Origin: Mycoplasmoidaceae bacterium
GTDB taxonomy: Bacteria > Bacillota_I > Bacilli_A > Mycoplasmatales > Mycoplasmoidaceae
Reading direction: 5' to 3'
Assembly (NCBI GenBank): GCA_024427265.1
Contig: JAKSVP010000012.1
Coordinates: forward strand, 1-22,761
Length of the DNA: 22,761 bases
A program made the position numbers and the translations under genes. Positions 1 to 18,429 of this stretch are shown piece by piece (within the stretch, counting starts at the first letter, position 1; the number at the start of each line of letters is the position of its first letter). The notes beneath the pieces are model-generated. The model ran no database searches, was not told the origin of the DNA, and saw nothing but the letters and a program-made list of their open reading frames with translations.

Positions 1-1269
1 TACTGTTCTCCTGTGAAGCAAAAGAATGATCCACAATATTTAAAGGTAAATTTACAAAAGCAAAATAGATTTGATCATTTCTTTTTAAAGAAATGAATTG
101 GTATTCCTTTATTCTTAATTATTGCTGTTGCTATCTATTATTTAGCATTTGGTAGTTATGCTGGTGGATGATTACAGCAAAACTTTAATGCAGCATTGGT
201 TGGACCAACAAATAGTTTATCAGCATTAATGATTACTGGATTTAATAACATTAATGCTCCAGATTGAGTATCGAGCATGATTGTTAATGGTATCTTTGGT
301 GGTTTATTCACAGTACTATCATTTATTCCAAGTATTGTTATTCTATTTATGTGTGTAACAATTATCCAACAGGTAGGTTTATTATCAAGAGTTAGCATCT
401 TGCTTGATAATGCTTTAAGTAAGTTTGGTATCTCTGGAAGATCAGTTGTTAACTTACTAACAGCATTTGGATGTAACGTTCCTGCTTTAATGTTAGCAAG
501 AAGTTCTAGTTCAAAGAAAGAAAGGATTATCTCTGTTTTAATCATTCCTTTCATTCCTTGTGCGACAAAAATTATTGTTATCTCTGCTATTTCTAATGCA
601 GTGTTTGGTCTAACCTTTGGTTGATTATTTATTCTTGGTGCAGTAATTGTTTCAGGAATAATTGCTCTAACACTAGGTTTAACATTCTCTAAAACACTAT
701 TTAGAAAACAAAAATCATTCTTCTGTGTAGAAATGGTTAACTGAAATGGTATTGACTTACGTATTATGTTTAAAAACGTATGACAAACAGTTAAAGGTTT
801 TTTAAAGAAAGCTTTATTAACAATTACTATTGCTAACCTAGTGTTCTGAGCATTATTACATTTAGGTAAAGGTGGATACATTTCTGATCCTGCTTTATTT
901 GAACAATCTGCACTAGGTTACATAAGTAAAGGTTTAAGTTATGTAATGTATCCAGTGTTTGGTTCAGCTAACTGAAAACTAACTTCAAGTTTAGTTGCTG
1001 GTATTCCTGCTAAAGAATTAATCTTAACTAACTTAGGTTTATCTGCTGGTGGCATTGATAATAGTAAATCTTTATTCACTCCTGCATTGGCTGCAAGTTT
1101 CATGGTATTTAGTCTATACTATTTACCATGTATTCCTTCTATTAATACAATGAGAACTGAAGCAGGAAGAAAATATTTATGAATTAATATTGGCGTTAGC
1201 TTTGCTATTGCCTATGTTCTAGCTGCTTTAGTATATTGAGTAGGCTTTGGTATTAGTTTGGTGGCATAA
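1..1269 (+). CDS. feoB: Ferrous iron transport protein B, C-terminal part (5' end outside window)
   Basis: Open in frame 1 from the first base to TAA at 1267-1269, with TGA as Trp; about 422 residues are visible. This is the polytopic membrane half of FeoB, the GTP-driven Fe2+ importer of the cytoplasmic membrane; the N-terminal G domain would lie upstream of the window. Supporting motifs are the two Gate-type hydrophobic blocks, the conserved GCNVPA near residue 160 (usual G-C-N-V-P), IPFIPCATK just after it, and a second block with YYLPCIPSINTM near the C-terminus, which matches the typical FeoB pattern of a Cys-Pro in each gate repeat. Many hydrophobic segments alternate with short Lys-rich loops. 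Its TAA overlaps the ATG of the next gene, so the two are probably co-transcribed and translationally coupled. I see no FeoA or FeoC partner in the window. Confidence 0.93.
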
Positions 1270-2054
1270 TGAAAAGATGATTAAGAAATACATTAGCAAT
1301 TTCTTTAAGTCTATTAGTAATAGCTATTTTTACAGTTACATGTGTTTGTGTTTATAAATTTAATTGATATGGTGCACCATTTTGATGAACTTGATTTGCT
1401 TTAGTTTGATTATTTGATTTGTTTGTTGGTGGTTACATCTTCTACAAACACAATCGAACTGACGAAACAAAAGCATTCTGATTATTAGTAATGATTGTAT
1501 TACCAATTGTTGGTGCCATTATTGCCCTTATCTTTAACTACAAGTTAAAGACGGAATATGGTAAACCAGATAATGATCATACTAAATTACAAGCAATGAT
1601 CTTTAAGGCAAAAAAGAGTATTAAGATTTATACTAACTCATTCTTTATTTCTAAAGATACAGTTAATGCTTTAAACTTTGCTAGATGAAAAGCAGTAAGA
1701 ATTGAATTAATTGTTTCTATTCAAAAAACCAAGACAAAGCAAGATTTACTTATTTATCAATTACAAAAAGCACTTGAAAACAAGATTGAATTGCATATGA
1801 CAAATAAGCAAATTCTAGAATCATTTATCATGATAGATGATGAAGATGTTATCTATACAGATAAGAACTTCAACTTCCGTAACATCTATCAATATAAAGC
1901 AATCAAACATTCTACTAAGGATATCAAACGTTACCAAAAGACATGAGAAACTGATATCATAACATCAACTTTATACCCTCTAGAAAGGGATCAAATTAAC
2001 CCTTTCAAAAAGGCCTATTTAAAGTTCATTAATATTTTTTCACCATTTTTCTAA
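1269..2054 (+). CDS. Short membrane protein resembling cardiolipin synthase, with degenerate PLD domain
   Basis: A 261-aa protein starting at the ATG that shares one base with the feoB stop (TAATG). Residues 8-29, 39-59 and 69-90 are hydrophobic and Trp-rich. The segment around 66-90 (K-x2-WLLVMIVLPIVGAIIALIFN type) resembles the N-terminal anchor of bacterial cardiolipin synthases (PLDc_N). Residues 100-261 resemble a single phospholipase D unit: a start like AKKSIKIYTNSFFI, and later FIMIDDEDVIYTDKNFNFR, which occupies the place of the HxKxxxxD-then-GG/N motif. The His and Lys of HKD are not there and only one unit exists, whereas true cardiolipin synthases are around 480-510 aa with two HKD motifs. 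Seen: truncated length and missing motif. Inferred: a non-catalytic relative or decayed paralog whose role is unknown. No terminator separates it from feoB. Confidence 0.6.
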
Positions 2055-2061
2055 TTTCCTA

Positions 2062-2067
2062 TATAAT
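2062..2067 (+). promoter_or_regulatory. -10 box of the rplJ-rplL operon
   Basis: A perfect TATAAT lies 8 nt after the preceding stop codon and about 15 nt before the L10 leader motif. Any -35 element is weak (TTCACC at the right distance), which is common in mycoplasmas. Start of transcription is expected near 2073-2075. Confidence 0.65.
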
Positions 2068-2080
2068 AAATGAGCAATAT

Positions 2081-2183
2081 ACCAAAGACAGTAACTGGCT
2101 ATGCCTTAATTCGTTACCGAGGAATATTATCAATTTATAGATAAATCTCTCTATGTCTTTGTGTGTATCACAAAGACATTTTA
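2081..2183 (+). promoter_or_regulatory. Ribosomal protein L10 leader (autoregulatory mRNA element)
   Basis: The leader carries the hallmark blocks of the L10 leader family directly upstream of rplJ: ACCAAAGACAG at 2081-2091 (usual ACCGAAGACAG) and TTACCGAGGAATAT at about 2114-2127. In Firmicutes this RNA binds the L10(L12)4 complex and controls readthrough into rplJL. Here CAAAGACA (2083-2090) can pair with TGTCTTTG (2154-2161). The same TGTCTTTG is the 5' arm of the terminator hairpin at 2153-2179, so the two structures exclude each other. This gives a complete attenuation switch. Recognition is by motif and position. Confidence 0.88.
2153..2183 (+). terminator. Attenuator hairpin in the L10 leader
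   Basis: An 11-bp perfect stem (2153-2163 with 2169-2179, ATGTCTTTGTG / CACAAAGACAT), 5-nt loop, then TTTTATTT. It sits 35 nt upstream of the rplJ start, so it can only act as a regulated leader terminator. Confidence 0.85.
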
Positions 2184-2217
2184 TTTGTATATTGCCAACA
2201 AATTACGGAGGTAAATT

Positions 2218-2706
2218 GTGTCTAAAGCAAAAATTGAACTAAAAGCTAAGGCTACTGAAGAATTTGTAGATAAGATTAAGAAAGCTAAATCATTCTTAGT
2301 GTTTGAATATTTAGGTCTTACTGTTAAGGAATTAACAGAAATGAGAGCTAACCTACACAAAGAAGGTGCAAGCATTGAAGTTGTTAAAAACAACGTTCTT
2401 AACCGTGCTTTCAAAGCAAACAATCTTCAAGTAGATGAATGCAAAGGCCCTAATGCTGTCATTATCTGTAATGATGATGAAGTATGTTCTTTCAAAGCAG
2501 TAGCAGATATTGCTAAGAAAAGAAACTTTGTAAAGTTTAAATTTGGATACTTAGAAAACCAAATTATTAAGCCTGACCAACTTGCCCAAATCGCAGCCAT
2601 TCCAGGAAGAAAGGGTCTATACTCTATGTTCTTATCTTGCTTAACAGCAAGTCTAAGAAACTTCCTATATGGACTTAATGCAGTTGGAAAGACTAAACAA
2701 GCATAA
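2218..2706 (+). CDS. rplJ: 50S ribosomal protein L10
   Basis: A 162-aa protein matching L10 in length and motifs: KSFLVFEYLGLTVKELTEMR near residues 22-41, the RNA-binding region VVKNNVLNRAFK at about 56-67, and a C-terminal helix that anchors L12 dimers. L10 forms the base of the ribosomal stalk. The start is GTG at 2218, chosen because a strong GGAGGT (2207-2212) ends 5 nt upstream and no ATG fits. The gene follows an L10 leader and precedes rplL by 22 nt, the standard order. Expression is probably autoregulated through the leader. Confidence 0.96.
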   Translation: MSKAKIELKAKATEEFVDKIKKAKSFLVFEYLGLTVKELTEMRANLHKEGASIEVVKNNVLNRAFKANNLQVDECKGPNAVIICNDDEVCSFKAVADIAKKRNFVKFKFGYLENQIIKPDQLAQIAAIPGRKGLYSMFLSCLTASLRNFLYGLNAVGKTKQA

Positions 2707-2728
2707 TTAGAAAAGGAATTTTATAAAT

Positions 2729-3094
2729 ATGGCAAAATTAACAAATCAACAAGTAATTGACTCTCTTAAAGAAATGTCTTTAATGGAAATCAATGATTTA
2801 GTAAAAGCTATTGAAAAAGAATTTGGCGTATCTGCTGCTGCTCCTGTAGCTGCTGCAGCTGCTCCTGCTGCTAATGCAGAACCATCATTAGTTACATTAA
2901 CATTAACTAACGCTGGTGCAAGCAAAGTAGCTGTTATTAAGATCTACCGTGAAATTACTGGTTTAGGTCTAATGGAAGCTAAAAACGCAGTAGACAAAGC
3001 TCCTTGTGTAGTTAAAGAAGGTATTAAACCTGAAGAAGCTAAGGAACTTGGTAAGAAATTCACTGACGCTGGCGCTAAAGTTGAAATTAAGTAA
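2729..3094 (+). CDS. rplL: 50S ribosomal protein L7/L12
   Basis: A 121-aa protein, the usual L7/L12 size. Residues 1-32 form the dimerisation domain, residues 34-50 the Ala/Pro-rich flexible hinge ([17 protein letters not shown]), and residues 52-121 the globular factor-binding domain with [20 protein letters not shown] and [11 protein letters not shown]. This is the multi-copy stalk protein that recruits translation GTPases. An AAAAGGA ribosome-binding site lies about 11 nt before ATG. The operon ends at a strong terminator 12 nt after the stop. Confidence 0.98.
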
Positions 3095-3105
3095 TTTAAT
3101 TTACT

Positions 3106-3138
3106 AAAAAAATAGGGTTTACCCTATTTTTTATTTTT
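3106..3138 (+). terminator. Intrinsic terminator of rplJ-rplL
   Basis: The stem AATAGGG / CCCTATT (3111-3117 with 3122-3128) is extended by A-T pairs, has loop TTTA and is followed by a T-rich tract. The same GGG/CCC core is reused after gatB and near 22390. Confidence 0.9.
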
Positions 3139-3153
3139 TCTTACATAAATACA

Positions 3154-3159
3154 TATAAT
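3154..3159 (+). promoter_or_regulatory. -10 box for the first lipoprotein gene
   Basis: TATAAT 29 nt before the start codon, located just after the rplL terminator. An AGAGGAG ribosome-binding site follows at 3177-3183. No clear -35. Confidence 0.55.
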
Positions 3160-3188
3160 TCTATCAATGCAATATAAGAGGAGAAATC

Positions 3189-3836
3189 ATGAAAAAAAGG
3201 AAAATATTATTGCCTTTATTGAGCGTCGGAGCGGTTGCTTCGACAGTTGGAATAATAACAAGTTGTAACAAGACAACCTTGGTTTTAAATAAAGTAAAAC
3301 AAATAAATGATAGAAAATATTTAATACATAATCATGTAAACCTAAAAGAGGAAACAATTTATACTATAAAATGTGATTTATCTAAATTAAGTGAAAATAT
3401 CACAGATTTCAATAACCAAACTTCGTTAGTGGTTAGCGATTCTATACCTGAAAAAGAAGGTGATGTTGCTGTCATTTATAATATTGCAGAAGCTGAAGTT
3501 TCGGTTGATGGAGTAGATTTACAACAAGTTCCAGAAGAACATACGAAAAATATCGAAAAAAATCAATACGCCCTTATTGATACAAGTCCTATTGATACAA
3601 GTCCTGATGTCAATAAAGCTAGAGTATTAGTTATTGGTGGTGAAACGTTGAATAAGGACTCCGAACTTGTTATAAAAATACAAGTTAGCACAAATGTTAA
3701 TGATGGTTATCTTTCTTTTGGCTTCCTTATTAAATGCCCGACCCGCCTAGTGCTAAATAATATTAAAAAATATGGTCTTTGACCATATTTTTTGTTTTAT
3801 AATAAGCAAATTAGGAGAAAATATGAAAAAGAGTAA
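3189..3836 (+). CDS. Small putative lipoprotein with a likely frameshifted C-terminus
   Basis: The N-terminus is a lipoprotein signal: MKKRK, a hydrophobic stretch, then IITSC with the lipidated Cys at 26. A good AGAGGAG site 5 nt before ATG supports this start. The remaining sequence is hydrophilic and beta-rich with no family I recognise. Read with TGA as Trp, the frame runs through the terminator hairpin at 3765-3793 and 14 nt into the next gene, ending at TAA 3834-3836 (215 aa). This is unlikely to be the native end. If one base is missing in the CCC run near 3738, the frame ends in A-K-TAA at 3758-3760, exactly where the paralogous neighbour ends (P-K-TAG) before the same terminator. I therefore infer a 1-nt deletion altering only the last few residues. 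Confidence 0.7.
3576..3605 (+). repeat. Tandem 15-bp duplication inside the lipoprotein gene
   Basis: ATTGATACAAGTCCT occurs twice back to back (3576-3590 and 3591-3605), encoding Ile-Asp-Thr-Ser-Pro twice. It is in frame, so it changes protein length without breaking the gene. Confidence 0.9.
3765..3793 (+). terminator. Intrinsic terminator between the two lipoprotein genes
   Basis: 13-bp perfect stem (A-rich arm ending TATGGTC, loop TTT, arm GACCATATTTTTT), then G and more T. The formal reading frame of the upstream lipoprotein runs through it. Confidence 0.9.
3798..3803 (+). promoter_or_regulatory. -10 box for the 739-aa lipoprotein gene
   Basis: TATAAT immediately after the T tract of the preceding terminator. 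An AGGAG ribosome-binding site follows at 3813-3817 and ATG at 3823, giving a leader of roughly a dozen nucleotides. Confidence 0.6.
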
Positions 3837-6042
3837 ATTTTTTGGGTTAATTGGTACCACTGGTGCAATGTTAACCTTGGGAACAATTTCCGCAGTTGCT
3901 ACATCTTGTTCTTGTAGCCAAACATTTATTGAAGCAGCTGATATTGATGTAAGTATTATTGGTAACAATATGGCTGCATATTTACAATATACATTGAATA
4001 GGGCTTTGAATAAAGATCAAAAATTAGTCGTTGCTCATGATGATGGTGGTCAATTTGTTTTTGGTGATTACACTGTTAAAAATAAATTAGTTACCGTTCC
4101 TGTATATTGATTAAAACAAAATGTTCATGACACTATTTCATGAACAGGTGATATGACATTTACTTGTATTAATACAAAAACATCGAAAGTTGTATGATCT
4201 CAAGTAATCACTGGATCTAAAGTTACATACTACCCTTATTGCATTTTGCAAAAAAATGTAGATGTTACAACTACAACTATATCTGCTGATGGCAAAACTA
4301 TAACAGCTGAAATGGAATTTGAAGTTCCTACAGGTTTACCTAAAGAATATTACCCAAAACTAAAAGCACATTTTAGTACTGGAGATTATAATAATCAATT
4401 TACAATTGATGAAGCAAAAGTTAGAATCGACTTTAACGAAGAAACTAACAAAGGTAAAATATCTATACCTGCTACAACAAAAAATACTGGTGTAGCTGAT
4501 GGAAACTCATTTAAGTTTGATATCCAAATTTTCTGTATGTATAGTGATACAGATATTCCTATCTGAATCTCTAATAACTATACTGGAATTAGAGTTTCTT
4601 ATTCTGTTGCTGAAAACCCTATTCCATATGGTTTAGAAGATGGATATATTCAATATCAACCTGATCCAGTATATGGAGATTATGGATGCTACCAAATTGT
4701 TGGCATTAATCCAGAAGCATTCAATGAAGGTTACAATACTCTATACATTCCTGATTTCGTAACAAGAATTGGTGATGGAAATGCAACAACACATGAACCA
4801 ATTAATCTTCCTGATTCTGTTACAAAAATTTCATTTTCCCCTAACTCAGTGTTGACAATCATTGAAGACAATGCTTTTTATGGAAATAAAAACATTTCAT
4901 TTATTGATTTAACAAACATTAACGATACGGCAGATAAACTATCCCTATTAAAGTTTGGTGCTAACTCATTTGGTGATTGATCTGAAAGCGGTCAAATTAT
5001 TTGATCAAGTGATATGAGCCAATACAACCGCCACATTTTAATTCTAGACTTATATAACGGTGGTTTAACTCAACCTGACTGATATAACTTCAAAGAAGTT
5101 AAAACAGAAGGTCAATTAAGAGAAGCTGTTGATACAGGAGTTAATGTTCGTTTAGGTGCAAGTATAACTCTAGGTGATGGAGAATATGAACGTGATGATT
5201 ATACTGGTCAAGTTGATATTGAAAAGAGTTTGCTAATTGACTTAAATGGTAAAACAATCACTTCTAAGAAACCTATTTACAACTATGATGAAAAAGAATT
5301 TGCCATCTTTGGAATTTGAAGTGGTGCTGATGTTATTGTAACTGACTTATCTGATAATCATAATGGCTCAGTAAAGGCATACAACCAACACCATGATGGT
5401 AGTTCGACAAGAGACCTTGGTAGACAAGTTACTCCAACAGATCCTAATGATTACGATAAAGATCTATGAGACCTTGTTGAAAATGACGATGGAACATACA
5501 CATTTAAACCAAGAGAATGTCGTTGTTTCTATATCCGTACTGATACACCTTCAAAACACCATACTTCACTAGAAATCATGACAGGTAATTACTATGGTAA
5601 CTGTACTACAGTTATGAACTGAAATGGTATTTGCTGAATTGAAGATATGTTTACAGCACAAGAAGCAACTGAAGGTGAACCATATAAATATGCTCCTCAA
5701 TTCCACCTTTACACTCCTTATTCTGAATATAAACCAGTTGGAGAAGAAGGGGCAGTAGATCGCCCATATGCTGAAATACTTAACTGTGATAACGGAAATA
5801 GTGCGCTTGGTACTGCTAAGTTTGAAGTTTATAGTGCTAAGTTCTATGCGGTTCAATGTTTAGATCAAAGTAAGGTTCCAACTGACACATGACTAAGTTA
5901 TAAGCCAAGTGATGCTGAAAATGATCCAATTATTGACCCAATATCTCATGAAGAAGTTCATGCTAACTGATTGGCAGATAAATATAAAGAAATTATATCT
6001 GGTGAAGGTGCAGATAAATATACATTAACTTGTCCTAAATAG
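3823..6042 (+). CDS. Large lipoprotein with LRR-like and beta-helix-like regions
   Basis: A 739-aa protein kept open by several TGA (Trp) codons. The signal peptide MKKSKFFGLIG... ends VATSC with Cys29 as the lipid site. Residues 30-300 look like beta-rich repeats. Residues about 304-360 carry a BspA-like leucine-rich pattern (LYIPDFVTRIGDG, LPDSVTKISFSPNS, IIEDNAFYGNKNISFIDL). Residues about 425-640 resemble right-handed beta-helix surface proteins: EGQLREAVDTGVNVRLGAS, then IEKSLLIDLNGKTITSKKP. These folds are common in mucosal bacterial adhesins, so surface attachment is a reasonable but unproven role. A good AGGAG site fixes the start. The gene has its own promoter and terminator and is bracketed by direct repeats, so it looks like a self-contained cassette. 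Confidence 0.82.
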
Positions 6043-6050
6043 TTAATATT

Positions 6051-6079
6051 AAAAATATGGTCTTTGACCATATTTTTTT
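6051..6079 (+). terminator. Intrinsic terminator of the 739-aa lipoprotein gene
   Basis: 12-bp perfect stem (6051-6062 with 6066-6077), loop TTT, followed by T residues. Same sequence as the hairpin at 3765-3793. Confidence 0.9.
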
Positions 6080-6082
6080 ATT

Positions 6083-6088
6083 TATAAT
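6083..6088 (+). promoter_or_regulatory. -10 box of the gatCAB operon
   Basis: TATAAT ending only 9 nt before the gatC ATG, with no ribosome-binding site between them. The transcript should begin within a few bases of the start codon. Confidence 0.6.
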
Positions 6089-6097
6089 TATTTTATT

Positions 6098-6382
6098 ATG
6101 AGTAAGAATATTGATCAAGAATACATCAAAGAATTAGCTCGATCATTATATTTTGAATTATCTGATGAACAATTACAAAAGATTGTTGCAGAAATTCAAG
6201 AATTAGATGAACAATTACAAAGAGCTAATTTTTCTGAATTAACTTCTAAATTTACTCCAGTTTGCTACACAAGAGTTAGCAACTGTGCTAAATTAAGAAG
6301 AGATGATGAACCTGATAAGAAGTATGATAAGGACTATTTATCTGATGCTAAGAAAGCAGATAAATATGTGGTAGGTAAATAA
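6098..6382 (+). CDS. gatC: Glutamyl/aspartyl-tRNA amidotransferase subunit C
   Basis: A 94-aa protein of GatC size. The N-terminal helix pair (IKELARSLYFELSDEQLQKI) is typical, followed by KLRRDDEP matching the family's L-R-x-D motif, and a short C-terminal tail ending DAKKADKYVVGK. GatC wraps around GatA and stabilises the GatCAB complex, which converts mischarged Glu-tRNA(Gln) to Gln-tRNA(Gln) in the cytoplasm. No Shine-Dalgarno sequence is visible and the -10 box is 9 nt upstream, so initiation is probably leaderless. gatA starts 1 nt after its stop. Confidence 0.93.
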   Translation: MSKNIDQEYIKELARSLYFELSDEQLQKIVAEIQELDEQLQRANFSELTSKFTPVCYTRVSNCAKLRRDDEPDKKYDKDYLSDAKKADKYVVGK

Positions 6383-6383
6383 A

Positions 6384-7778
6384 ATGAAATCTGTTATTTT
6401 AAACCTACATGAACAACTTAAGTCTGGTAAAGTTAAACCAGTTGATCTTATCAACAATGCTAAAGCATTAGCTGATAAATATAGCTTTACAAACTCTATT
6501 ATCACACCAATCTTTAAAACAAGTGATAAACCATTTGATCCAAATAATCTTTTATCATGTATTCCTTACTCATTAAAAGATAATGTCTCTACTGAAGGAA
6601 TTACTACAACTGGTGGAAGCAAATTCTTAAGTAAATATGTTCCTCCATACAATGCTTCTGTTTATGGTTTATTAAAAATAAACGGAGCAGCTTTAGTATC
6701 TAAAGATGCTTTAGATGAATTTGGTTTAGGCGGAACTGGAACTCATTGTTTTACAGGTCCAGTTTGTAACCCTCATGATAAAACAAGAAGAACTGGTGGT
6801 TCATCATCTGGTTCTGTTGTTAATGTGGCAACTGGTATTTCAACATTTGCTATTGGAACAGATACAGGCGACTCTATTAGAAGACCAGCATCATTAGTTG
6901 GTGTGGTTGGTTATAAACCAACTTATGGGGCTATTTCAAGATATGGTGTTTTACCTTATGCACCAAGTTTTGATCATGTTGGGATTATTAGCAAGTATGT
7001 TGCTGATGCTACAATCGTTGCACAAACATTAATTAAACATGATCCAAAAGATTACACATCAACAACAATGATTAAAGATGTTAAACTTGAAAACTTAAAA
7101 AAAGAAAGTGTTATTCGTTTTGTTGTTTTAACAAACTTAGTCAAATTACTTGATCAAAACAAACAAGATATATTTAATAGATTTGTGCAACAACTAAAAG
7201 ATGCAGGTCATATTGTTACGGAAGCACAATTAGACAATCAAGTTCTAGATAAAATTCTATTTGCTTATAAAGTTTTAACATACACTGAAGGTTATAGTTG
7301 TTATTCTAATCTTCAAGGTATTACCTTTGGTAAGAATGAAGGCAAAGATGATGATGACTATGAACAAACATTGATCAAATCTAGAACTTTAAACATTGGC
7401 AATGAAGTTAAAAGAAGATTTGTTATTGGTACTTTCTTAACTGCTAAAGAAAATATGTCAAGTATTACTTTAGCTGCTCAATGTATTAGACACATGGTGC
7501 AAGATGAGCAAGCAAGATTATTAAAACTTGGAGATTGTATCTTAATGCCAACATTAATGTCTACTGCTCATGTCATGGATGACTTTAGCAGAGAGAGCAA
7601 TTATGATGATTGATTAATGATGGATAACTTCTCTGGAACACCAAGTATTTCCATTCCATTTACAAAGATTGATAATCTGCCTTGGGGATTAACAATCTCT
7701 TGTGATATCTATCAAGATATGAAGCTATTAAACATTGCTTATACTCTTGAAGATATGATTGGAGGTAACCATGAATAA
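6384..7778 (+). CDS. gatA: Glutamyl/aspartyl-tRNA amidotransferase subunit A
   Basis: A 464-aa amidase-signature enzyme, the glutaminase subunit of GatCAB. The Ser-cisSer-Lys triad is readable: Lys65 (SLKDNV), Ser140 in GGSSSGS, and nucleophile Ser164 in TDTGDSIRRPAS. Spacings of 75 and 99 residues equal those in well-studied GatA. The residue before the nucleophile is Asp rather than the usual Gly (GDS, not GGS), a change worth comparing with other mycoplasmas. A TGA at 7611 is Trp, and the frame continues through P-W-G (a rare TGG codon at about 7678) to TAA 7776-7778. It overlaps gatB by 8 nt, so translation is coupled. Confidence 0.96.
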
Positions 7779-9207: not shown

Positions 9208-9226
9208 GGTTATCCCTATTTTTTTA
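9200..9226. terminator. Bidirectional terminator between gatB and the DUF31 lipoprotein gene
   Basis: AAAAATAGGG / CCCTATTTTT with loop TTAT, A-rich on one side and T-rich on the other, so it works in both directions. It overlaps the last bases of both convergent genes. Confidence 0.88.
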
Positions 9227-10207
9227 TAGTCATTCAAAGATAAAATCTACTGAATCATATTTGAACAAACTAAATCTTGGTCAGAACTTGGTTGGGTTTT
9301 TGGCTCTATCAACTTCTCCACCTCAATAGATACCACAAATTTCATAATCTTGTGTTACTAACATACTTCCTGAAGCACCACCAGTCATTCAATTTATTCC
9401 TTTATTTTGTTTACATACATATTGTGGTGAAACATCCATATATGGATAAAATTGATAATAATCTTCATCAATATAATGAAATTCAGAGTATGCTCTTTTG
9501 TATGTTAATTGGTTTGCACTAAGAGCATGAGTTTCTCATTTGCCACCTGCTAAACCCATTTCTTCTTTATATGGATAACCAGCAACATATTTCTTTTTCT
9601 TTAGAATGTCAGCATCATCTGCTGGAACAAATTTATTAATATAACCTTTTTCTCTTTGTGTTTCATTTAAACGATCTAATTTTTGTTTAATTGAACCTGA
9701 TGGATCAGCAAAGTTTGCATCGCAAACATATAGGTCAATACCATCATATCCATCAGGATTATAAAGAAATTTTTTGTCTCTGTTAGGCATATGATAGTCA
9801 AAACAATTGTTATCAAATAATATGTAGTCATCATAATCAATGACACCATTGCTGCTTGCTAATGATGAATCAGCATAGAAGTAGGCAAAAAGTTTAGGTT
9901 CAGTTGAAAGTAATTTTTCAAAACCTCAAGTAACATGTCAATTTGTTGCTACATGATATTGATAATCATTATTATCTTCTGGTGTCATATCACTAATAAT
10001 TCATCCTGTTCCAAAAACTAGTGAATATTCTTTACCTTTAGATGTTTGATAAACAGCAACAGCCATTAAACTAAATGTTCTATCACTAATGAATTGTTTC
10101 ATTTCATTAGGAACAAAATCACTACCACAACTAGTAAATGTAAATGGTACACTAGCTGCTACTAGTGATGTTGTTATTAAAGGTGTTAATCATTTAGTTA
10201 ATTTCAT
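9224..10207 (-). CDS. Putative lipoprotein serine peptidase, mycoplasma DUF31 type
   Basis: A 327-aa protein read on the minus strand with several TGA as Trp. The signal MKLTKWLTPLITTSLVAAS leads to FTSC with Cys27 as the lipid site. The rest fits the mycoplasma DUF31 family, a trypsin-like fold whose members include the immunoglobulin protease MIP. Hallmarks in order: DRTFSLM at 42-48, FGTGWIIS at 65-72, ATNWHV with candidate His91, GIDLYVCDANF with candidate Asp158, and GGASGSML with candidate Ser279, followed by ICGIYWGG. All three catalytic positions are present, so I infer an active surface protease. There is no ribosome-binding site; a TATAAT ends 10 nt before ATG. It converges on gatB and shares its terminator. 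The substrate cannot be told from sequence. Confidence 0.85.
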
Positions 10208-13468: not shown

Positions 13469-13477
13469 AATAAATAA

Positions 13478-13502
13478 AATATATCTTGTTTTCACAAGAT
13501 AT
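13478..13502 (-). promoter_or_regulatory. Inverted repeat overlapping the probable uvrA -10 box
   Basis: ATATCTTGT (13481-13489), 4-nt spacer, ACAAGATAT (13494-13502): a perfect 9-bp inverted repeat. On the minus strand its downstream half merges with TATATT (13483-13478), which lies 9 nt before the uvrA ATG and could be the -10 box. This geometry resembles an operator. A hairpin at the very 5' end of the mRNA is the alternative reading. Confidence 0.45.
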
Positions 13503-13531
13503 AACCAATAATATATATTTAATAACCCATT

Positions 13532-13553
13532 ATAAATACCTAAAGGTATTTAT
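13532..13553. repeat. Inverted repeat in the uvrA / lipoprotein intergenic region
   Basis: ATAAATACCT (13532-13541), spacer AA, AGGTATTTAT (13544-13553). A perfect 10-bp near-palindrome with no T tract, so more like a protein-binding site than a terminator. Confidence 0.6.
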
Positions 13554-13583
13554 CTTTGGCTATTAAGAAAATATATAGATGGA

Positions 13584-13611
13584 AATAAATAATTTATATA
13601 AATTATTTATT
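13584..13611. repeat. A/T-only inverted repeat
   Basis: AATAAATAATTT (13584-13595) and its exact complement (13600-13611) around a 4-nt loop. All A/T, so part of this could be composition alone, but 12 perfect pairs stand out. Confidence 0.5.
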
Positions 13612-13654
13612 AAGTTTATAATGAAGGTGAGATGAATAATATATATAAAATATA

Positions 13655-13660
13655 TATAAT
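13655..13660 (+). promoter_or_regulatory. -10 box of the two-gene lipoprotein operon
   Basis: TATAAT at the end of a TA-repeat tract, 69 nt before the start codon. Transcription would begin near 13666, inside the hairpin that follows. Confidence 0.45.
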
Positions 13661-13700
13661 AAAGTATCTGGGTTACCTTTGGTAGCTTAGATACTTTTTG
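13661..13700 (+). promoter_or_regulatory. Long leader hairpin with T tract upstream of the lipoprotein operon
   Basis: AAAGTATCTGGGTTACC (13661-13677), loop TTT, then a fully pairing 3' arm (13681-13697; G-U allowed) and more T. This 17-bp stem has the form of an intrinsic terminator, but the gene upstream (uvrA) is divergent, so it can only lie in the leader of the downstream operon. Attenuation or mRNA 5' protection are both possible. The ribosome-binding site GGAGGT at 13721-13726 is outside the stem. Confidence 0.6.
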
Positions 13701-13729
13701 ATTCATCACATAATTCCATAGGAGGTATT

Positions 13730-16700
13730 ATGAAATTAAAAACGAAACTTGTTAGTATTTTAGGAACAGCTGCTATTGCTACAACTAGCTTGTCTGTTGT
13801 TTCTGCTTGTACGTTTACTAGAAAGCCAAAAGGTGAATATGATAAGCCTACTTTCCACTATGCCGGTGAAACAACATTGGCTACTGAAGAAGGCAGAAAC
13901 ACACTTGCCATTTCTGGTTTCTATGCAAATAGAGATTTATATACTGGTGAAGAAGTAACAATTGAAGCTATAAATCCAACAAGCAATGATAAATCTGAAG
14001 ATGTTACTGCTTCCTTCAGTAAAGATGAAAATGGTTTTGTTGTTAATGTAACATTAACCAAAATTGAAGCTGAATCAACTGAAGAAGGTGGTGCGACTTT
14101 CAATTTATTGTTCAAAACTAAATATGACAATCAAACTTATGAAATTCCTTTAGAGAATAAAACGTTCACAGTTAACTATATTCCAAAATATGTAAGAAAT
14201 GATATTACATTATTTGGTGCAACAACTGTCAGCACTCCTAAAGGCAACTCTGAATTCACACTTCAATATCAACTTAATCATAAACTTGAAGCAAATAGAA
14301 CAATTCTAACACCTGAAACAAACAATAGTAAGGTTCATTATAGATCTATGTCTAGAGAGGGGCAAATTATTACATTAACTCTATGAGTTGATGTTCCTGA
14401 AGCTGAAAAATTCTCTCCAGATATATCTGAAAAGTTCACTGTAAGTTTCCCAATTAGTTATTATGGAAGCACTCAACCTCGTGATACTATAGCTCATGAG
14501 GAAGTGACTGTTAACTATGTTCCTAATTGAAAACCAATCTATGTTTATGCTGTTGGTAAGACAGAAGAAGACTTTATTGATTTAGGTTCTATTAAGAAAG
14601 ATGTTGATGAATCTGGAAAAGTTAAACTAACAGCTAATGCTAATTTTGAATTGTCTAGATCTCTTGAAACTGGTGAACAACTTCAAATTACTGCATCAAC
14701 TAATGATGGAAATCCTCTCCCTCACTTTGATAAATGAACATACACAATGATTGGAACATCAAATTATTTGAGCTTATCAACAACATTTGAACCTCAAAAA
14801 GTTGGTGAAGCATATGTTAGTGAAGCTTATAGCTTCCAATTAGTGTTCACATTTACAAAAGAAGGAGAAGAACCAAGAGTTACAACATACCCAGATGTTG
14901 GTTTTGGTTGATCGCCTGAATGAAAAAACAATAACATTTCAGACTTAGAAGAAGAAAAAACAACACCTTCATACGAATTTGAAGCAGATGGAACAACATC
15001 ATTTAGTGTTCCTAGTAATAGATTTAAACTTGAAAGAAACCTTGACATAAGTAAAGGTGACTCATTACAAGTTCAAGTTATTCAAGACCAAAATGTTGTT
15101 CAATACTCTAGTTATGAATTGGTATCAACTGGTGGTGTTTCACCTGAATATTATTTAAAGATGTACTTTAATTTGAATATTCCCGCTGATGAAATACAAT
15201 ATCCTCACACATACCCATTTAAATTACAATTTAGCTTTAAAAACAACAATGTTTTGATGAGAAGCAAAACTTTACCAAGTAAAAGTGGCGAAATTTATAA
15301 AGTTAACTATAAACCATCGACTAACAAATTAACATTCCCTAACGAAGTAAAAAACGGTCAAGCTGGATATACATATTTTGCATTCGATGCTATTTTTAAT
15401 GAAGCTCCTACATATCCAAGCATTGAAAATGTTACTGTAACACCTGATGCAGGATATGCAATTAGCCCTTTTAATAGCACTACTACACTTGATGGAAAAT
15501 CTAAATTTGAATATAAACCTGCTGAAAACAAGATATCTTTTGAACTTTGTTTTGTTCCAACAGAACAACAAAAATATACTGCACAAAGCTTTAATATTAG
15601 CGTTAGTGTTAAACCAACAGGAGTTGATCCTATAACTGGAAGCACAACATTAATTTATGCTCCTCTTGAAGAAGATCCTGAACAAGAACAAGAAATTGAA
15701 AGTTATATTCATGACCGTTCATTCTCATTAATGTGCTACACTGAAGCAAACGGTACATACAATGTAAACTATGCTTCAGCATGAATTATCAATCAAGCTC
15801 ATAATGGTGTTTTAGATAAAGAAACAAATGAAATAAATGATGATGATCCTAAGCAAAATTATGCTTATTATGTTGTAACATCTTACGATACTTACAAAAA
15901 CTTTACAAAATTGTATGCACAAGCTGCGGCTAGTGAAGGCAATGTTAAGTTTGGTGTTGGTGTAGCAGATGGTACAATGCAAAAAGAATATTCAGATTAC
16001 CAAGGTAATAAAGTTAAAGGTCTTAAATTTAACACTGACTATATGATGCTAGATGCATACAATGCATTCTCATTTGAAACTGACTGTAGTAATTATCTAT
16101 GATCAAACAACGTTGAAGATCCATACTACAGCAGTCTAACAGGTACATCAAACATTGTTGTAGGAAGAATAAACTTCGCATATGTTGATGGTGCAACTGA
16201 AGCAGATTTACCATCTGGTTCTAAAATGAACATTCATATGAAGAACAAACTTGGAAAGATTAATGGTTGAGCTGAAGAAGGTACCCCTATTGTTAACTTC
16301 AAAGAAGATTCTGAAGGAAAAGACACTTCTAGTGGTTACTATGTTTGAAACTCAGACCAAATATTCCAAGGTGGTTTCCCAACTATTTCTTATAATATTT
16401 CATCACAAAAAACAGATACATTAGCTAGATGAGATGAAGGTTGATGAACAAACGAAGGTAAGACAACATTTACAACACAATACTACTCTGCGGATGAAAC
16501 TTATTACTATGGGCTATATGATAGCAAGTATCTTGATAAAGATATTAGCCTTTATCACTACTCGCCTACTTACTACATTAAAAATATTAATACTAGCTCA
16601 CTTCCACGTTTATCTCCTGGATCAATGATTGCTTATCGTGAATCAGATAATAAAATATATGTGTTTGGAATCTTTGGCGGAAGAATTGGACGCTCTAATG

Positions 16701-16777
16701 GATGCTTTGACATCCTATCTGAAGAATGGTCTGATGGCAATGCACATAATATATTAGATTATTACATAAACCAATAA
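13730..16777 (+). CDS. Large lipoprotein: Ig-like repeats plus catalytically dead DUF31-like domain
   Basis: A 1015-aa protein with more than a dozen TGA-Trp codons and one TGG. The signal MKLKTKLVSILGTAAIATTS ends VVSAC, Cys27 lipidated. Residues 30 to about 640 look like tandem beta-sandwich units, each closing on a motif such as FTVNYIPK, VTVNYVPN or YKVNYKPS. After an acidic linker (EEDPEQEQEIE) the C-terminal ~350 residues align with the DUF31 peptidase at 9224-10207: DRSFSLM at 662-668, ASAWIIN, YYVVTSYDTYKNF, NIVVGRINFA, SPGSMIAY, FGIFGG. The positions matching His91, Asp158 and Ser279 are Asp720, Asn808 and Pro963, so peptidase activity is very unlikely. A binding role is inferred. 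GGAGGT lies 4 nt before the ATG. The next lipoprotein gene starts 14 nt after its stop. Confidence 0.8.
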
Positions 16778-16791
16778 TGAAAGGAAAATTT

Positions 16792-18351
16792 ATGAAAAAT
16801 AAAAAAATATTAATCCCTATTTTATCTATTGGTGCACTAACCTCTGTTGTTGCACCATTATCAACATTAACAAGTTGTGGCAAAAAACTTGGAAATTTAA
16901 TGACTGAATACACTCCAACAATTGCTGCACCTGAATATAAAGAAGCATTTGCTACTCCACATGATGTTGTCGTACAATATCTTAAAGAATGTTACGATAA
17001 CCCTGAAATATTTAGGCAAGATTTGTTATACACATTATCTAGAGGAATGCCTCAGTATAATGCTTATATGTCTGAATTCTGTGAAATTAGTGATGCAGAT
17101 TATGACGCAACAATTGATAAAATCCAAGTTAATAAAAATGATGAAACGGTATCTTTTGAATTAACTATGAAGATTCATTTCGATTACAGCAAAACGAAAA
17201 AATATGAACTTGAATGATATGATTTAAATTACCAAATATGAGATTCAGTTACTACAGCAAAATTTGTCTTTGATTTCAAAACTACTACTTTTGATGCGTT
17301 CGATGCAAGAGGACAAAGAAGACAAATGACAACATATGCTGGTGCAACTCAACTAGGAATTTCTGAATTCCGTTCAACTACTCAATTGATTAAACAAACT
17401 GGAAAAGGTATAAATCTTGAAGGCAATGAAGTTGACTTAGGTCAAAGTGGTGGTGATTTATGTCACTTTATTCTTCCAACATATGATTACTACGAAAAAG
17501 AAGGACAAACTGAAACATATTATAAGAACTATACAGAAGCTTGAAAGTTATGATTAAACTACTGAGGTATTCAAGCACCAGTTCTATCATTCAAATATTA
17601 CATGCCAAGTAATAACGTTCTTGCTTCTGACGACACTCCTAGAGCTTTAGACTTTGGATCTTATCATATGCAATATGCTAGATTAAAAGATCTTTATACT
17701 TATGGAAAATCTACACAAACATCTTATGTTGATAACCCAGAAAAAACAATTATGGGGTTCAACCTATCTCATGACTCATCTCGAAACTGAACAAATATTC
17801 AATCAGATATAGGCTGAGATGCAGCAAATAAAGCTTTAACACTTGGTAATCAATCTGGATTAATTACTAATGTTGCTCCACATGCTTTTGATGGTGTATT
17901 TTCTGAATATACAAATTTAGGGATCCCTAACGAAGTAGAAGCATTGGTTATACCTGGATCTTATTCAGATTTTGGTGACTATGCATTCACATCTAGCTTT
18001 GGATTGAAAAAATTAATATTTGAACAAACAGGTGACAATGTTGTTGCTTTCCATGACCATAGTTTTGATACACTACCAAATGTTGAGGAAATTGACTTCA
18101 GTAAAATGGGAAAGACAAAATCAGGTATGTTAACACAAATGGGTGGTATTGGTGCATCAGCATTTGCTGATATCCATTTAGGAGTTGAAACACAAGTTGG
18201 TGTTAAAGAAGGTGACATCATTATTCCAGTAGGTGCTGATGAAGAAACATGAAAAGCACAATTAAAAACACTAGGATTTAAATTAGTGGAAGAAGAACAA
18301 GCTAGTGGAAAACCCGGTGGATGATACGTTCACACTGCTGACAAACCTTAA
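16792..18351 (+). CDS. Lipoprotein with BspA-like leucine-rich C-terminal region
   Basis: A 519-aa protein, second gene of the lipoprotein operon. The signal MKNKKILIPILSIGALTSVV ends LTSC with Cys29 as lipid site and resembles that of the small lipoprotein at 3189. I chose the ATG at 16792 because AAAGGA lies 6 nt upstream; an in-frame ATG at 16777 overlaps the previous stop and lacks a site. Residues 30-370 show no family I recognise and are rich in Tyr, Thr and Trp. Residues about 381-440 carry an LRR_5/BspA-like pattern (ALVIPGSYSDFGDYAF, LKKLIFEQTG, HDHSFDTLPNVEEIDFSKM). Such repeats are known from mucosal and trichomonad-associated microbes, but here only two or three units are visible. 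A terminator follows directly. Confidence 0.78.
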
Positions 18352-18361
18352 TCGAAAAACT

Positions 18362-18390
18362 TACATAGGTAAAACCTATGTATTTTTTTA
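18362..18390 (+). terminator. Terminator of the lipoprotein operon
   Basis: TACATAGGT / ACCTATGTA (18362-18370 with 18374-18382), loop AAA, then seven T. Confidence 0.92.
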
Positions 18391-18416
18391 TATATATTTT
18401 TAATTTAAATAATAAA

Positions 18417-18422
18417 TATAAT
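18417..18422 (+). promoter_or_regulatory. -10 box of mnmA-alaS
   Basis: TATAAT ending 7 nt before the mnmA ATG. Transcription would start at or next to the A of ATG, implying a leaderless mRNA. Confidence 0.6.
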
Positions 18423-18429
18423 ACATAAC

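What the first reader, a model, noticed from the sequence alone, without database searches (positions are those of the whole stretch)
13730..16777. Giant lipoprotein carries a DUF31-type peptidase domain with all three catalytic positions replaced
The C-terminal ~350 residues align by eye with the DUF31 lipoprotein at 9224-10207 over DR-FSLM, G/A-WII, the His loop, the Asp strand and the Ser loop. The His91 equivalent is Asp720 (ATNWHV versus VTSYDT), Asp158 is Asn808 and Ser279 is Pro963 (ASGSM versus SPGSM). Loss of all three suggests a pseudo-protease kept as a binding or decoy module, fused to Ig-like repeats. The frame is intact over 1015 codons, which argues against plain decay.
Basis: partly seen in the sequence, partly recalled or inferred. 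Interest (0 to 1): 0.72.

Follow-up and report, generated by a model that had tools for sequence, protein, structure and literature searches.

The report
Surface protein with a dead protease
A gut mycoplasma carries a large, very variable surface protein that ends in a protease-shaped domain whose cutting residues are gone, and a related species keeps a similar dead-protease design in the same place, so it is probably used for binding rather than cutting.

Summary

New: a related genome has a syntenic ortholog (uvrA, 1062 aa, 519 aa, mnmA) whose domain also lacks His and Ser, although the proteins are 26% identical and uvrA/mnmA 96%. Neutral decay would not leave such frames open. Among 95 other DUF31 frames, 94 of 94 with that column aligned keep His (a biased sample).

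The two-gene operon is a hypervariable island between conserved flanks (dN 0.9 against flank dS 0.44-0.57). I read it as a lipid-anchored surface pseudoprotease kept for binding; ligand unknown, Ig-like repeats unproven. Dead DUF31 proteins may not be unique: a table on M. pneumoniae lists the serine motif for 4 of 16.

The parts
13730..16777 (+). giant lipoprotein, 1015 aa (code 4); lipobox cysteine C27 (VVSAC)
   Evidence: lipobox read from the sequence; ortholog P0031 has a Cys at 27 too
13841..15685 (+). five diverged repeats of 115-133 aa (residues 38-652; borders set by eye), first one modelled as a beta-sandwich; Ig-like not proven
15677..16774 (+). degenerate DUF31/MIP-type trypsin-fold domain, residues 650-1015
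15887..15889 (+). codon of D720, in the place of catalytic His91
16151..16153 (+). codon of N808, in the place of catalytic Asp158
16616..16618 (+). codon of P963, in the place of catalytic Ser279
16777..18351 (+). second gene of the operon, lipoprotein of 519-524 aa (likely start at 16792, as in the ortholog); weak LRR_5 signal below Pfam's cut-off
   Evidence: starts at most 14 bases after the giant gene's stop
9224..10207 (-). intact paralog: DUF31 lipoprotein with H91, D158, S279
13663..13699 (+). terminator-like leader hairpin (17 pairs in the fold, then TTTTT), ending 30 bases before the start codon; also in the ortholog
18362..18382 (+). terminator-like hairpin after the operon, same sequence in the ortholog

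Best explanation
The gene encodes a lipid-anchored surface protein of a Mycoplasmoidaceae-like gut bacterium: a stalk of five repeats, probably beta-sandwiches, that carries a MIP-like trypsin-fold head without a catalytic triad. It is probably made together with a second lipoprotein from one operon. Shown by sequence: the homology, the loss of the triad, its conservation in one ortholog, the gene order, and extreme divergence between conserved flanks. Inferred: the head cannot cut and is kept as a binding surface for a host or microbial ligand; it varies because it is exposed to immune or phage pressure; divergent alleles may have been exchanged at this locus.
For: Homology and triad loss. 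Ortholog in synteny (uvrA, giant, partner, mnmA) with S743/D824/F985 in the catalytic columns. A scan of that genome (25 of 25 candidates scored) gives two DUF31 loci above noise: this one and a second beside gatB, of which only the last 69 residues, with an intact Ser motif, are on the contig. Fold. Constraint: 0 of 300 neutral runs keep an open frame at 0.1 or more changes per site. Diversification: 26% identity for the giant, 39% for the partner, 81-96% for uvrA, mnmA (partial) and gatA, gatB, gatC; giant dN about 0.9 against dS 0.44-0.75 in uvrA, mnmA, gatA and gatB. Among 95 other DUF31 frames, His is kept in 94 of 94 and all three residues in 81 of 82 with the columns aligned.
Against: The model's alignment held DUF31 rows, so its fold is partly built in. 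Foldseek's scores are modest (MIP 7adk_B only rank 9, E 8.5e-4, TM 0.38 by query). The erosion is not significantly concentrated at the active-site loops (4 of 13 against 24 of 44 conserved columns kept in the window's domain, 5 of 13 against 26 of 44 in the ortholog; Fisher p about 0.2 each). No ligand, expression or binding data exist. Only two orthologs are known; the pair profile found the ortholog in 1 of 95 genomes and nothing else.
Confidence: 0.6

Rival explanations
1. The pseudoprotease regulates or presents substrate to the intact DUF31 protease encoded about 3.5 kb away, much as pseudoprotease partners of active paralogs do elsewhere.
For: The window holds one intact and one degenerate DUF31 gene, and the ortholog's genome one degenerate locus and one whose visible end is intact. 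A pseudoprotease that activates a related protease is described for CspC and CspB of Clostridioides difficile (starts of abstracts in the listing).
Against: No interaction data. The two genes are on opposite strands, not in one operon. They diverge at different rates: 26% for the giant against 59% for the 66 alignable end residues of the intact protein, or 42% if P0020 is that species' protein.
Confidence: 0.15
2. The domain is a decaying relic inside an otherwise useful stalk protein (relaxed constraint).
For: The whole gene is very divergent, and conserved columns are lost throughout the domain, not significantly more at the active site.
Against: Both species keep the full domain in frame to the C-terminus, with R43, W69, F166, K176, N181, G210 and P212 of the family intact. 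Neutral drift gives many stops.
Confidence: 0.12
3. The domain is still an enzyme with a relocated or different catalytic apparatus.
For: H943 is shared by the two domains in the pairwise alignment; the Asp is kept in the ortholog.
Against: The nucleophile position is Pro or Phe and the His position Asp or Ser; no other His and no Cys is shared. In the joint alignment H943 falls opposite D258 of the family, where the ortholog has Ser, so even that His is unsure.
Confidence: 0.06
4. The similarity is only a beta-barrel resemblance, not DUF31 descent.
For: Pfam and NCBIfam do not hit the protein, apart from a sub-threshold Kelch_2 match.
Against: Profile hits along most of the domain in both orthologs, far above shuffles; the best structural match after realignment is MIP.
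Confidence: 0.04

Closest known systems
MIP, mycoplasma immunoglobulin protease (PDB 7adk chain B)
   Different: MIP cleaves antibodies (PMC8593674, passages); here the triad is gone, no MIB was recognised in the partner, and no NCBIfam MIP model hits the protein
DUF31 lipoproteins (PF01732), such as the intact neighbour at 9224-10207
   Same: homologous domain, lipobox, same window
   Different: the neighbour is 327 aa with an intact triad; the finding has five repeats before the domain and no triad
Long DUF31 lipoprotein-like frames of related genomes (L092 1059 aa, L083 840 aa, L096 839 aa)
   Same: long N-terminal part and C-terminal DUF31 domain
   Different: their triads are intact, and the window's N-terminal part finds no significant similarity in them
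M. pneumoniae DUF31 proteins listed without the GSSGS motif (12 of 16 in Table 1 of PMC7176901)
   Same: DUF31 proteins for which the table lists no serine motif
   Different: the table mentions no repeat stalk and several are short; I did not test their triads

Membership tests
DUF31 (Pfam PF01732) | score above Pfam's gathering cut-off | tested here: not met
   no hit at E<=1 for the giant protein or its domain alone; the intact neighbour passes
DUF31 (Pfam PF01732) | descent from DUF31 by sequence profile | tested here: met
   with a clade-specific profile
DUF31 serine peptidases | catalytic His, Asp, Ser | tested here: not met
   D720, N808, P963
MIP (NCBIfam NF045841, NF045842) | score above the curated cut-off | tested here: not met
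   no hit for the giant protein at E<=10; the intact neighbour scores 27.3 and 21.3 against 125 and 305
MIP | trypsin-like fold closest to MIP | tested here: met
   on a model whose alignment held DUF31 rows; Foldseek alone ranks MIP ninth
MIB-MIP system | adjacent MIB antibody-binding protein | tested here: inconclusive
   the partner hits no NCBIfam family and in Pfam only LRR_5 below cut-off, and no solved structure below E 0.98; no fold was predicted for it
MIB-MIP system | binding and cleavage of immunoglobulin | not testable with these tools
   needs protein
Ig-like repeat proteins | Ig fold of the repeats | tested here: inconclusive

The most novel reading that the evidence does not exclude
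The operon is a non-cleaving descendant of a MIB-MIP-like system: a dead MIP-type head on a stalk and a co-expressed LRR-type lipoprotein hold, rather than cut, host antibodies or another mucosal ligand. It sits at a locus where highly divergent alleles are exchanged between conserved flanks.
Probability: 0.12. Interest if true: 0.8.

Novelty: new variant of a known kind. Interest (0 to 1): 0.52.

Why it matters
Mollicutes have small genomes, yet two species keep a 1000-residue surface protein that ends in a protease fold without a full catalytic triad, at the same locus. If it binds instead of cutting, DUF31 domains, usually annotated as peptidases, include binding proteins, and annotation by family name misleads. 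The pair of intact and dead domains in one window makes the question testable with purified proteins.

Tried and rejected
Protein database searches with the C-terminal region (4607 candidates) and with the alignment of both orthologs (7996 candidates) found nothing. The second did not return even the ortholog or the window's protein, so these absences say little (proteins predicted with the standard code may break at TGA; my inference). Contig scans with the giant protein found no relative. The domain alone as a single sequence found nothing in 95 genomes, not even the ortholog, and the tool calls that answer uninformative. The pair profile of the domain found only the known ortholog, 1 of 95 genomes. 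The partner's profile is matched over its full length only in that genome; it also has seven weak short matches elsewhere in G225, and weak short ones (E 1.5e-5 to 0.009) in 6 other genomes of 95. The tree joins the two degenerate domains (SH-aLRT 91, not starred), but both are long branches, so orthology rests on synteny. Preferential erosion of the active-site loops was tested and is not significant. The partner has no significant family or solved relative. A PHROG match of unknown function to residues 67-116 of the giant (E 3e-4) was not pursued. The survey of 95 frames is biased: its 80 regions came from the higher-scoring hits and some long frames in the list, and that search scored at most about 6 candidates a genome and missed the ortholog itself. 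In its tally a frame counts as keeping a residue if any of its aligned pieces does.

Full report
What is there. The window's genes are open with TGA read as Trp, as in mollicutes. Of 28 relatives of its intact DUF31 protein, two are named Mycoplasmoidaceae and one Mycoplasma sp.; the others carry no name. The frame 13730-16777 gives 1015 residues with a lipobox cysteine at 27. Pfam and NCBIfam find no domain above cut-off in it. The neighbour at 9224-10207 is a true DUF31 lipoprotein (48.3 bits, cut-off 27), and in 24 aligned members H91, D158 and S279 are invariant.

The ortholog. Genome G225 was reached through a distant DUF31 locus. Its contig C22 reads uvrA(-), a 1062-aa lipoprotein, a 519-aa lipoprotein, mnmA: the order of the window. 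The large proteins are 26% identical, the second proteins 36-39%. The ortholog's domain scores 43.5 bits in the whole protein and has Ser, Asp and Phe in the catalytic columns, which are S743, D824 and F985 counted. A scan of G225 finds two DUF31 loci above noise: this one and one beside gatB, cut by a contig end, of which the last 69 residues with an intact Ser motif are visible. That end is identical over 34 residues to P0020 (compared by eye), which has His, Asp and Ser; P0020 is named Mycoplasma sp. and a second name is cut at 'Candid'. Candidatus Hennigella equi, a horse-gut member of this family, is a guess for it (passages of PMC8957277).

Constraint and change. Neutral drift of the window's gene leaves stops in 300 of 300 runs at 0.1 changes per site or more, and in 299 of 300 at 0.05. 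Between the species, the available parts of uvrA and mnmA have dS 0.57 and 0.44; gatA and gatB 0.67 and 0.75. The giant gene has dN about 0.90 and dS about 1.46, the partner dN about 0.61 and dS about 1.37 (rough, because the alignments are at 26-39% identity). Of 260 aligned intergenic bases before the operon 231 are identical (88.8%), and the hairpin after it is the same. So two genes have diverged beyond their flanks even at synonymous sites. Exchange of old alleles, or very strong diversifying selection, would do this; I cannot tell which.

How common is loss of the triad? I examined 80 fetched regions, giving 95 DUF31 frames other than the window's and the ortholog. His is kept in 94 of 94 with the column aligned, Asp in 82 of 85 (the rest a gap, a Lys and an Asn), Ser in 86 of 87 (the other, a Phe, in a 148-residue fragment); all three in 81 of 82 with all three columns covered (the exception is the gap). 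The choice of regions favours typical members. Long N-terminal parts on intact DUF31 domains occur (L092, L083, L096), so the architecture itself is not new. Table 1 of PMC7176901 (that section read whole; passages) lists the motif GSSGS for 4 of 16 M. pneumoniae DUF31 proteins; no activity on immunoglobulin was found for MPN592 there. Dead members may thus exist elsewhere. Among the papers listed (15 or 20 rows each, of 38 to 6,558 papers found) I saw none on a DUF31 pseudoprotease; passages of PMC8593674, PMC12994834 and PMC11213901 mention none. Most subscription papers are outside that library.

Mechanism. The most likely reading is a lipid-anchored, variable surface protein whose protease-shaped head binds and does not cut. 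That the head lacks a serine-protease triad is shown by sequence; that it binds is inferred from its upkeep, surface position and diversity. A regulatory role towards the intact paralog is the main rival.

Noticed in passing
window 13663-13699 (+); L036 2354-2390: A hairpin (17 pairs in the window, 19 in the ortholog) followed by TTTTT lies in the leader of the operon, ending 30 bases before the window's start codon, although the gene upstream is divergent. The ortholog has A-U where the window has two G-U pairs (z -6.2 and -6.7). It could be an attenuator.
   Followed up: partly
window 13469-13729 and 18352-18429: Non-coding DNA on both sides of the operon is far more conserved between the two species than the two proteins it encloses.
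   Followed up: partly
window 3767-3791 and 6052-6076: The same 25-base hairpin stands before and after the 756-aa lipoprotein gene; no third copy within 2 mismatches in the window, and its 19-base core is in none of 136 loci. A possible cassette boundary.
   Followed up: partly
window 3189-3836: A 215-aa lipoprotein frame runs through the first of these hairpins and past the likely start (3823) of the next lipoprotein gene; it may be a truncated gene.
   Followed up: no
P0028, P0029: Related DUF31 proteins with an intact triad also carry LRR_5, the domain type weakly seen in the operon's second protein.
   Followed up: no
window 2064-2193 (+): Ribosomal protein L10 leader (RF00557), ordinary.
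   Followed up: yes
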